DNA from: Helicobacter rodentium ATCC 700285
GTDB lineage: Bacteria; Campylobacterota; Campylobacteria; Campylobacterales; Helicobacteraceae
Reading direction: 5' to 3'
NCBI RefSeq assembly: GCF_000687535.1
Contig: NZ_JHWC01000007.1
Location: 1 to 64,000 of the forward strand
Length of the DNA: 64,000 nt
Shown one piece after another: positions 10,531-26,044 of the stretch. Every line of letters starts with the position of its first letter. Positions within the stretch are counted from its first letter, which is position 1. Below the pieces are notes generated by a model, which saw only the letters and a list, made by a program, of their open reading frames with translations, was not told the DNA's origin and did no database searches. A program made the translations under genes and the position numbers.

Positions 10531-10965
10531 TTAGATGTTTCTTGAGGATTCTATTGCATAGGTGTAGATTCCACCTTGCTTACGCAATGCGCCGACAATA
10601 GCTTGGTACATAATATCGTTTTTCCCCATTTCGCTTGTTTCAATATCTACATCTACACTATTGCCATCATTTCTTGCTAAATGTCCATCACGATAAAACA
10701 TTGTTGGACGCTTTAGGCTCATATCCTCAACGGGCAGTAGGTGATTTTTGTTAGTAATGGCGACATCAAGCTCCAATTTGCGGTCGCGATTGAAAATATC
10801 ATCGGCTTTTTGCGCCATCATTTGTTCAAAATTTACATCTTTTGGGCGATACATTGGAGTAGAGACATTGGCAATATTACTAGCAATCATATCCCTGCGC
10901 AACGCTCTATGGTCTAATGCTTCTTGTGCCAATGCGCGTGCTGGACTATAACTAAAAATGCTCAT
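10531..10965 (-). CDS. flgB: Flagellar basal-body rod protein FlgB
   Basis: A 144-aa proximal rod protein with the signature LRRDMIASNIANVSTPMYRPKDVNF near the N terminus. It assembles with FlgC, FlgF and FliE into the rod and is exported through the flagellar type III apparatus. It is the first gene of flgB-flgC-fliE(-ftsI) and is preceded by a canonical sigma-54 promoter about 36 bp upstream. This places it in the RpoN-dependent middle class of the flagellar cascade, probably under the FlgSR system. Confidence 0.95.
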   Translation of the reverse strand: MSIFSYSPARALAQEALDHRALRRDMIASNIANVSTPMYRPKDVNFEQMMAQKADDIFNRDRKLELDVAITNKNHLLPVEDMSLKRPTMFYRDGHLARNDGNSVDVDIETSEMGKNDIMYQAIVGALRKQGGIYTYAIESSRNI

Positions 10966-11000: not shown

Positions 11001-11018
11001 AAGCAAGTTTTGTTCCAA
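11001..11018 (-). promoter_or_regulatory. Sigma-54 (RpoN) promoter of flgB-flgC-fliE
   Basis: On the minus strand the sequence TTGGAACAAAACTTGCTT is a near-perfect match to the -24/-12 consensus, with GG and GC separated by ten bases. The predicted transcript start near 10991 gives a leader of about 25 nt before flgB. This regulation of flgBC is known in Campylobacter and Helicobacter. Confidence 0.92.
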
Positions 11019-24523: not shown

Positions 24524-25609
24524 TTAGAGTTTTGTTGGGAATACAAGTAGCATTTGAAATGCAATTTCAATGTCTGCACAAGTGATATTGGATAGTGCAG
24601 TGTGCATTCCATAGGATAAAGGATTCTCTTTTGTATTAAAGTGCTGTGGTTGCCAAGAGATTTTATATCCATTGGTTTCTAAGGAATTGGGTTCTAAATA
24701 AAAGGATAAAATATTCGCAATGGAATCCGTGATTTGTTCTTGCTCTTCATCAGAGAATCTCTCCGCGACTGATGCAAACAATTTGTGTCCCGTAGCTTCT
24801 ATTTTACGCTCTCTGTAAAAATTGATATTTTCTTCAATCCTTTTTAGGGTTTGCATATCCACTTCTTTGTTGTCAATGGAGTTTTTTAGTGCCATAGGTA
24901 TTGCGCTCAAGAAACACTTAAGTTTATCCTCTAAATGGATAGATTCAGTTCGGATTCCATATTCTAGCAAAAGAGAGGAAATTTTTTCATTTTCTTTTAA
25001 AACCTCATTGCTACTTATTGATGTATTATCTGTATAATAATAATTTTTGTTTATTATTTCTTGTATTATTTGGGGATTCTCTTGATAGATTTCAAGCATT
25101 ATTTTATCCATTTTTGATTCAAGGAATCTTTGGGATTCGTTCGCTTCTTGGAATGTAATTGTTCGGGTTGCATTGGGTTTTAATTTGGAATCAATTTTTT
25201 TAATAAACTCTTTTCTGTCTAAATTTCCACCATAATCACAGGATTGAATATTTAATTCTTTTACGAGATGCTTAAGGTTCTGCCTGTAACGATAGCTATA
25301 ATTTGTGATTTCTTGTAAAATCTCCTTTTCACTAGAGGAGAGACTTTTAAATTCTTGATGGATAGGGTTTTTGGTTTGATTTTTATCCAAAAGATTGGCA
25401 TAAATATTGATAGGATTCTTGGGTACATGGGTGCTTGTGTTAGAAAAATGAATCTTTGGCTCAAGTGCGGTTTGCAAGAACCAATCCATTGTCTTTTTGT
25501 CAGAAAGATTTTTTGTTTTGTCAAGGTGTTGCGAGGTTTTGTCTGTTTTATGTTGCTGTGGTTTGCAAATTTCGTAAGATATTTTCGGTAAAGAATCCCA
25601 AATAAGCAC
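24524..25609 (-). CDS. Unrecognised 361-aa protein with a sigma-54 promoter
   Basis: I do not recognise this protein. It is hydrophilic, rich in N, K, E and S, with predicted helices from about residue 80 onward (including SLSSSEKEILQEI and VDMQTLKRIEENINFYRERK). It has no signal peptide, membrane segment or catalytic motif. GTG at 25609 is preferred over a TTG at 25645, because AGGAG lies at 25622-25618 and the TTG would lie inside the sigma-54 promoter at 25640-25657, upstream of the predicted transcript start. Sigma-54 genes in Campylobacterota are almost all flagellar, so a motility role is inferred. Its TAA abuts that of the ABC-F gene with no gap. Confidence 0.7.
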   Translation of the reverse strand: MLIWDSLPKISYEICKPQQHKTDKTSQHLDKTKNLSDKKTMDWFLQTALEPKIHFSNTSTHVPKNPINIYANLLDKNQTKNPIHQEFKSLSSSEKEILQEITNYSYRYRQNLKHLVKELNIQSCDYGGNLDRKEFIKKIDSKLKPNATRTITFQEANESQRFLESKMDKIMLEIYQENPQIIQEIINKNYYYTDNTSISSNEVLKENEKISSLLLEYGIRTESIHLEDKLKCFLSAIPMALKNSIDNKEVDMQTLKRIEENINFYRERKIEATGHKLFASVAERFSDEEQEQITDSIANILSFYLEPNSLETNGYKISWQPQHFNTKENPLSYGMHTALSNITCADIEIAFQMLLVFPTKL

Positions 25610-25639
25610 TGCCCTATCTCCTCTTGTTTGTAAAAAAAT

Positions 25640-25657
25640 AAGCAAATTTTATTCCAA
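25640..25657 (-). promoter_or_regulatory. Sigma-54 (RpoN) promoter of the 361-aa gene
   Basis: On the minus strand TTGGAATAAAATTTGCTT has the invariant GG and GC of the -24/-12 elements at the required ten-base spacing. It resembles the flgB promoter in this window (14 of 18 or more bases). The predicted start near 25630 leaves a leader of about 20 nt with AGGAG and then GTG, which is consistent. Confidence 0.78.
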
Positions 25658-25849: not shown

Positions 25850-26044
25850 ATGAAAAATTTAATTTGTATTGTATTTGCGTTTTTGGTTTTAATATTTGGT
25901 GGTTGTGAAAGTAGAATTTTAATCACAGAAAATCAAATCCAACCAGCTTCGGAATACAATATTGTAAAATTTGGGAATTTAAACTATTTTAGCATACAAT
26001 CTATCTATCAAAGCCATTTTAAAAGAGCCTTTATTTTTCATTAG
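25850..26044 (+). CDS. Small putative lipoprotein
   Basis: A 64-aa product with a lysine-containing N terminus, a hydrophobic stretch (LICIVFAFLVLIFGG) and a lipobox-like FGGC at about residue 19, so it could be lipidated by Lgt and LspA. The mature part is about 45 residues with no recognised motif. Promoter and ribosome site are present. Its end overlaps the convergent glycosyltransferase stop by 14 bp. It could be a truncated remnant of a longer lipoprotein. Confidence 0.5.
   Translation: MKNLICIVFAFLVLIFGGCESRILITENQIQPASEYNIVKFGNLNYFSIQSIYQSHFKRAFIFH

What the first reader, a model, noticed from the sequence alone, without database searches (positions are those of the whole stretch)
24524..25657. 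Unknown 361-aa protein driven by a sigma-54 promoter: candidate new flagellar-regulon member
The minus-strand sequence at 25657-25640 has GG-N10-GC at -24/-12 and looks like the flgB promoter in the same window. The predicted transcript start, AGGAG and GTG line up with a leader of about 20 nt. This also corrects the gene start from an upstream TTG that lies inside the promoter. In Campylobacterota sigma-54 is used almost only for flagellar genes (established). The protein matches no flagellar family I know and stands alone.
Basis: partly seen in the sequence, partly recalled or inferred. Interest (0 to 1): 0.65.

Follow-up and report, generated by a model that had tools for sequence, protein, structure and literature searches.

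The report
Flagellum-coupled protein family, probably exported
A gene of unknown function in a Helicobacter carries a genuine flagellar-type (sigma-54) promoter and belongs to a previously unnamed, fast-multiplying protein family that is switched on with the flagellum and may be exported through it, rather than being a standard part of the flagellum itself.

Summary
Window 25657-25640 (-) carries TTGGAATAAAATTTGCTT (GG-N10-GC), 31 nt before the GTG start of a 361-aa ORF (24524-25609). Orthologues confirm the start codon. All five subfamily-A genes have an exact GGNAYN4TTTGCTT 41-72 nt upstream of the start, although the bases between and around the elements have changed. Among 159 ORFs in the window and related loci, ten carry it: nine family members and one other unknown. 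The genome has one RpoN and one true sigma-54 activator, a FlgR. Most other matched promoters with a recognisable downstream gene drive flagellar genes. The protein is not unique. It belongs to an unnamed family (no Pfam, NCBIfam, PDB or fold match), essentially confined to one Helicobacter clade, with up to seven hits per genome and many decayed. The paralogues lie after Sec-exported, double-glycine-leader precursors and before a periplasmic C39 peptidase. The NCBI 'Cj0814 flagellar-dependent secreted protein' family fills that same slot elsewhere. Patchy distribution, absence of an obvious signal peptide and a disordered polar N-terminus argue against a conserved structural part. I favour a sigma-54/FlgR-timed cargo of the flagellar export apparatus. 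Regulation about 0.9; export about 0.55. No experiment was possible.

The parts
25640..25657 (-). sigma-54 promoter, -24/-12 element TTGGAATAAAATTTGCTT
   Evidence: exact core conserved in 5/5 subfamily-A genes
25618..25622 (-). Shine-Dalgarno AGGAG, 8 nt before the GTG
   Evidence: sequence
24524..25609 (-). CDS, GTG start, 361 aa; query member of the family described here (subfamily A)
25583..25609 (-). codons 1-9: short conserved N-terminus (ML-[IT]-x-[DN]-S), candidate export signal together with the disordered stretch behind it
   Evidence: mean pairwise identity 0.41 in residues 1-10 against 0.12 and 0.11 in residues 11-30; export role inferred
25349..25582 (-). residues 10-87, mostly low confidence (pLDDT under 50 in 10-12, 14-35, 50-87), variable polar linker
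24647..25348 (-). residues 88-321, helical core shared with the paralogues, ending in two strands (308-312, 315-321)
11001..11018 (-). comparison: flgB promoter TTGGAACAAAACTTGCTT (flgB CDS 10531-10965)

Best explanation
The gene is transcribed by sigma-54 RNA polymerase under FlgR, in the middle (hook-basal-body) class of flagellar genes. It encodes a non-structural accessory protein that is probably exported by the flagellar type III apparatus. It has a short conserved N-terminus, a disordered polar linker that would thread through the export channel, and a helical core that would act outside the cell. Shown by computation: the promoter, its conservation, the single RpoN and FlgR, and the new family with its paralogues in a slot shared with the Cj0814 'flagellar-dependent secreted' family. 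Inferred: export through the flagellum, and an accessory role towards host or competitors rather than in motility. The export inference is weaker for this member than for its paralogues.
For: Promoter: exact GGNAYN4TTTGCTT 41-72 nt upstream in all 5 subfamily-A genes and upstream of most paralogues; those without it are mostly downstream genes in a tandem or lie directly behind a GG-precursor gene. Only 1 other ORF of about 149 has it. The -24/-12 bases are invariant while spacer and flanks vary. Regulator: one RpoN; one strong sigma-54 activator, E=2.5e-72, next best 1e-7, whose best NCBIfam match is FlgR. Regulon: matching promoters precede FlgH, FlgF/G-like, FlgL, FlgB, HP1233-family and the fliK-flgD-flgE and flgM-flgN-flgK loci. 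Family: of 14 double-glycine precursor genes with a following ORF, 7 are followed by this family and 4 by the Cj0814 family. The N-terminal 25 residues are polar (N,S,T,Q,Y): 0.38 subfamily A, 0.64 B, 0.50 Cj0814 family, against 0.24 in 47 control ORFs. A distant homologue in a second Helicobacteraceae genus also has the sigma-54 motif about 48 nt upstream and a double-glycine precursor gene next door. Literature: the C. [quoted passage not shown] C. jejuni also has sigma-54 genes of unknown function that are dispensable for motility, cj0428 and cj1650 (PMC4626219).
Against: No expression or secretion data exist. The window protein's N-terminus (MLIWDSLPKISYEICK) is less like a flagellar-substrate N-terminus than those of the paralogues: polar fraction 0.32 against 0.44-0.76. 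There is no detectable homology to Cj0814 (hhalign probability 0.2%), so the shared slot shows association, not kinship. Passage through the flagellum was itself questioned for one large C. jejuni candidate (PMC5223770). Several paralogues in double-glycine operons lack their own sigma-54 motif. The orthologues are related to one another, so 5/5 is not five independent observations.
Confidence: 0.57

Rival explanations
1. A lineage-specific structural or assembly component of the flagellum (rod, hook, cap or motor accessory) needed for full motility.
For: sigma-54/FlgR promoter shared with hook-basal-body genes.
Against: Subfamily A is in 5 of 19 genomes of the genus although FlgH is in 19/19. 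The family is multicopy, with truncated and frameshifted copies. No flagellar family, PDB or fold match.
Confidence: 0.13
2. A component of the double-glycine-precursor / C39-peptidase / outer-membrane-barrel system: the family assists, processes or protects against the secreted precursor, and the window gene is a detached copy that keeps the flagellar timing.
For: Paralogues sit between precursor and C39 peptidase in own-genome contig C5 and in G014 and G002. Precursor-paralogue pairs occur repeatedly.
Against: The window gene and its orthologues have no precursor or peptidase next to them. G010 carries subfamily A but no C39 hit at E<=1e-6. The same slot can hold the unrelated Cj0814 family.
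Confidence: 0.12
3. A cytoplasmic protein merely timed with flagellar assembly (regulator, chaperone or immunity protein), never exported.
For: No obvious signal peptide or transmembrane segment by inspection; export rests on composition and association only.
Against: Conserved N-terminal tip followed by a disordered variable linker; composition of the wider family resembles flagellar substrates.
Confidence: 0.15
4. The promoter match is a chance hit in AT-rich DNA and the gene is expressed otherwise.
For: The exact pattern occurs at least once in 5 of 100 shuffles of the window.
Against: Conserved at the same place in all orthologues and in most paralogues that lead their own transcript, and in a homologue from another genus.
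Confidence: 0.03

Closest known systems
Cj0814 family flagellar-dependent secreted protein (NCBIfam NF046095)
   Same: sigma-54 motif upstream of several members; no obvious signal peptide; polar N-terminus; several copies per genome; sits behind double-glycine precursor genes in the same genomes and same operon slot
   Different: No sequence homology: no HMM hit for any of 15 family members, hhalign probability 0.2%
Campylobacter Fed (flagellar co-expressed determinants) and Cia proteins
   Same: Non-structural proteins expressed in the flagellar programme and reported as secreted through it (PMC5223770)
   Different: Feds are sigma-28 dependent; this gene has a sigma-54 promoter; homology to Fed/Cia proteins was not tested separately
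Unknown sigma-54 genes of C. jejuni (cj0243c, cj0428, cj1650)
   Same: sigma-54-dependent genes without known function; deletion of cj0428 or cj1650 left motility intact (PMC4626219)
   Different: Sequence relation not tested directly; the family was not found beyond Helicobacteraceae in 399 genomes drawn from the order
Fap amyloid system (FapD C39 peptidase, FapF barrel), for the neighbours of the paralogues
   Same: Periplasmic-type C39 peptidase, best NCBIfam matches FapD and FilB; barrel candidate with a marginal FapF match, E=0.019
   Different: All scores far below the curated cut-offs; precursors have a bacteriocin-like LNxxEMxxVVGG leader, whereas Fap proteins lack canonical C39 sites; the window gene has no such neighbours

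Membership tests
sigma-54/FlgR (middle-class) flagellar regulon | -24/-12 promoter GG-N10-GC at proper distance from the gene | tested here: met
sigma-54/FlgR (middle-class) flagellar regulon | genome encodes RpoN and FlgR, with no competing sigma-54 activator | tested here: met
   (FlgR is the best NCBIfam match at 638.7 bits, below that model's 750-bit cut-off)
sigma-54/FlgR (middle-class) flagellar regulon | expression lost in rpoN and flgR mutants | not testable with these tools
   needs RNA data
Cj0814 family (NF046095) | HMM score at or above 80 bits | tested here: not met
   no hit for any of 15 family members; hhalign probability 0.2%
Flagellar-apparatus cargo (Cia/Fed type) | co-expression with flagellar genes | tested here: inconclusive
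   promoter evidence is strong but no expression data
Flagellar-apparatus cargo (Cia/Fed type) | no Sec signal; N-terminal export signal | tested here: inconclusive
   absence of a signal peptide judged by eye; composition test moderate for subfamily A (mean 0.38 against 0.24, resampling p=0.001) and strong for B
Flagellar-apparatus cargo (Cia/Fed type) | secretion lost in a flagellar export mutant | not testable with these tools
   needs a secretome experiment
Structural flagellar protein | match to a rod, hook, filament, cap or motor family | tested here: not met
Structural flagellar protein | present wherever the flagellum is | tested here: not met
   family in 15/19 and subfamily A in 5/19 genomes; FlgH in 19/19
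Fap/Fil-type C39 system component | next to C39 peptidase, barrel and Sec-exported precursor | tested here: not met
   met by paralogues, not by the window gene or its orthologues

The most novel reading that the evidence does not exclude
Helicobacter of this clade run a two-route secretion programme timed by the flagellum. A variable Sec/double-glycine/C39-processed protein and a partner from one of several unrelated flagellum-exported families are encoded as interchangeable pairs, and the window protein is a solo descendant of such a partner. This would be a new kind of variable secreted-protein system wired to FlgR/sigma-54.
Probability: 0.25. Interest if true: 0.85.

Novelty: new variant of a known kind. 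Interest (0 to 1): 0.55.

Why it matters
Outside the structural genes, few sigma-54-controlled products of Campylobacterota have a known function. This adds a whole family, unnamed in Pfam and NCBIfam, to that regulon, and links it by genome context to a proposed class of flagellum-dependent secreted proteins and to a double-glycine/C39 secretion operon that I found no description of. If the proteins leave through the flagellum, enterohepatic Helicobacter species would have a variable secreted repertoire that the usual family searches do not see. It can be tested with single-gene deletions and a secretome comparison.

Tried and rejected
Pfam and NCBIfam scans of the protein and 14 relatives: only chance-level or low-complexity hits. 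PADLOC: nothing. PDB sequence profile: best E=0.033, unconvincing. AlphaFold models of the window protein (pTM 0.69) and a paralogue (pTM 0.65) against PDB, and of the window protein against viral models: no match at E<=0.001, so no function from fold. Homology to the Cj0814 family tested by profile-profile and rejected. The list with up to two mismatches (574 hits) is mostly noise in AT-rich DNA and was not used; one of the eight exact hits (L030, C12:31884-31901) lies in front of no convincing gene start. Weak search hits L009, L011 and L012 lie in ORFs that look like NADH dehydrogenase and MiaA (judged by eye) and were set aside.

Full report
Checking the observation. The minus strand at 25657-25640 reads TTGGAATAAAATTTGCTT: GG at 25655-25654, ten bases, GC at 25643-25642. 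Twelve bases downstream lies 25630, then AGGAG at 25622-25618 and GTG at 25609. The ORF from that GTG is 361 aa and ends at 24524; the upstream TTG start (25645) lies inside the promoter. Orthologues begin at the equivalent residue and share the MLI-DS start, so the corrected start is right. The flgB promoter at 11018-11001 is indeed similar, with one mismatch, and the gene behind it is FlgB.

Is it more than chance? On its own only just: the exact pattern is expected 0.05 times per window. Comparative evidence settles it. All five subfamily-A genes (window, G017, G011, G016, G010) have an exact GGNAYN4TTTGCTT 41 to 72 nt upstream of the start. The alignment shows TTGG-A and TTGCTT invariant while spacer and flanks have diverged. 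In 159 ORFs of at least 150 aa from the window and eleven other loci, ten have this element within 150 nt upstream. Nine of these are listings of family members (some loci overlap, so the same gene can appear twice) and the tenth is another unknown (L085, 187 aa). The orthologues are related, so this is not five independent trials.

Regulator and regulon. The genome holds one RpoN and one strong sigma-54 activator domain, E=2.5e-72; the next is 1e-7, at a level expected of generic AAA proteins. That activator has receiver and AAA domains, and its best NCBIfam match is the Campylobacter FlgR model (638.7 bits, below that model's 750-bit cut-off); gyrA- and asd-like ORFs flank it. The eight exact pattern hits include promoters of FlgH, an FlgF/G-like protein, an HP1233-family protein, and the ORF preceding flgD and flgE in fliK position. 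Three lead unknown ORFs, one of them ours, and one has no convincing gene. One-mismatch hits include flgL, flgB and the flgM-flgN-flgK locus. The names FliK, FlgM, FlgN and the identity of L136 flgD/flgE rest on position and appearance, not on an HMM hit. In C. jejuni the sigma-54 regulon is described as almost exclusively flagellar (PMC7677240).

The protein family. Sequence search finds significant relatives in the same genus only. A profile search of 121 Helicobacteraceae genomes finds the family in 15 of 19 genomes of this genus and in none of the other twelve genera. In 399 genomes drawn from the order, one further weak homologue appears in a second Helicobacteraceae genus. That homologue also has a sigma-54 motif about 48 nt upstream and a double-glycine precursor gene beside it. 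Contig lengths and names tie the genus to Helicobacter pullorum, H. valdiviensis, H. burdigaliensis and unnamed strains; the window's own species was not identified. Up to seven hits per genome occur, some truncated or frameshifted. Two groups can be told apart. Subfamily A (the window gene) is a single gene in 5 of 19 genomes and ends in a conserved FQ[MIV]L..FPT motif. Subfamily B is multicopy, with an N-terminus such as MASISNxYxNY and a C-terminal coiled region ending in a motif like DSIMQTLLKES.

Neighbours of the paralogues. In the own genome (contig C5, L091) and in G014 and G002 the order is: a protein with a Sec-like signal and an LNxxEMxxVVGG leader, then a subfamily-B gene, then a C39 peptidase with a signal sequence, then in some a barrel-like protein. 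The peptidase is Pfam C39 at E=1e-20 and resembles FapD and FilB; the barrel's FapF match is marginal (E=0.019). Of 14 distinct double-glycine genes with a following ORF, 7 are followed by this family, 4 by the Cj0814 'flagellar-dependent secreted protein' family and 3 by other unknowns (own-genome example L142). The two families are not homologous by profile comparison. Many hits match only the leader part of the precursor (about residues 1-55), which points to conserved leaders and variable mature parts. The window gene and its orthologues lack these neighbours, and G010 has subfamily A without a C39 relative at E<=1e-6. Subfamily A therefore probably acts alone.

How it most likely works. 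Shown: sigma-54/FlgR-type promoter, GTG start, family, conserved core, no known fold. Inferred: export by the flagellar apparatus. Supporting features are the short conserved N-terminal tip (identity 0.41) followed by a variable linker (0.12, 0.11) predicted largely disordered to residue 87, the polar N-terminal composition, the patchy distribution against universal flagellar genes, and the shared slot with the Cj0814 family. The window protein's own N-terminus is the weakest of these points, and nothing here measures secretion. A precedent for dispensable sigma-54 genes exists in C. jejuni (cj0428, cj1650; PMC4626219), and a caution on flagellum-dependent secretion of a large protein is given in PMC5223770.

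Verdict. 'Unknown and alone' is right about annotation and operon, but not about homology: this is one member of an expanding family. The likeliest role is an accessory, probably exported, product of the flagellar programme (0.55-0.6), not a conserved flagellar part.

Noticed in passing
L091 (own genome contig C5) 133-2946; L097, L093: Operon of a Sec-signal protein with bacteriocin-like double-glycine leader, a family member, a C39 peptidase with a signal sequence and a barrel-like protein; leaders conserved, mature parts variable, many copies per genome.
   Followed up: partly
L142 (own genome contig C4): Double-glycine precursor genes paired with Cj0814-family genes, a third unknown family (MFGGLTSVANSL...), a C39 peptidase and a barrel.
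   Followed up: partly
L110, L112, L116, L120, L121, L122: Cj0814-family (NF046095) genes in this and another Helicobacteraceae genus often carry the same sigma-54 element 34-71 nt upstream of their start.
   Followed up: partly
L024 (C1:213511), L027 (C2:172942), L085 7572-8135: Three further unknown ORFs (166, 451, 187 aa) directly behind strong sigma-54 promoters, no convincing family match; L024 has the same 18-base promoter as the window gene.
   Followed up: no
G000:C12, C20, C5 contig ends; G015:C25; G011:C7: Paralogues often lie at contig ends or on short contigs, so copy numbers are probably underestimated.
   Followed up: no
window 25850-26044 (+): 64-aa ORF with lipoprotein-like N-terminus (MKNLICIVFAFLVLIFGGC) between this gene and the upstream glycosyltransferase; possibly a remnant.
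   Followed up: no
L016/L020 (G017:C6), L095 8629-9712, L010: Decayed copies of the family with frameshifts or several stops.
   Followed up: no
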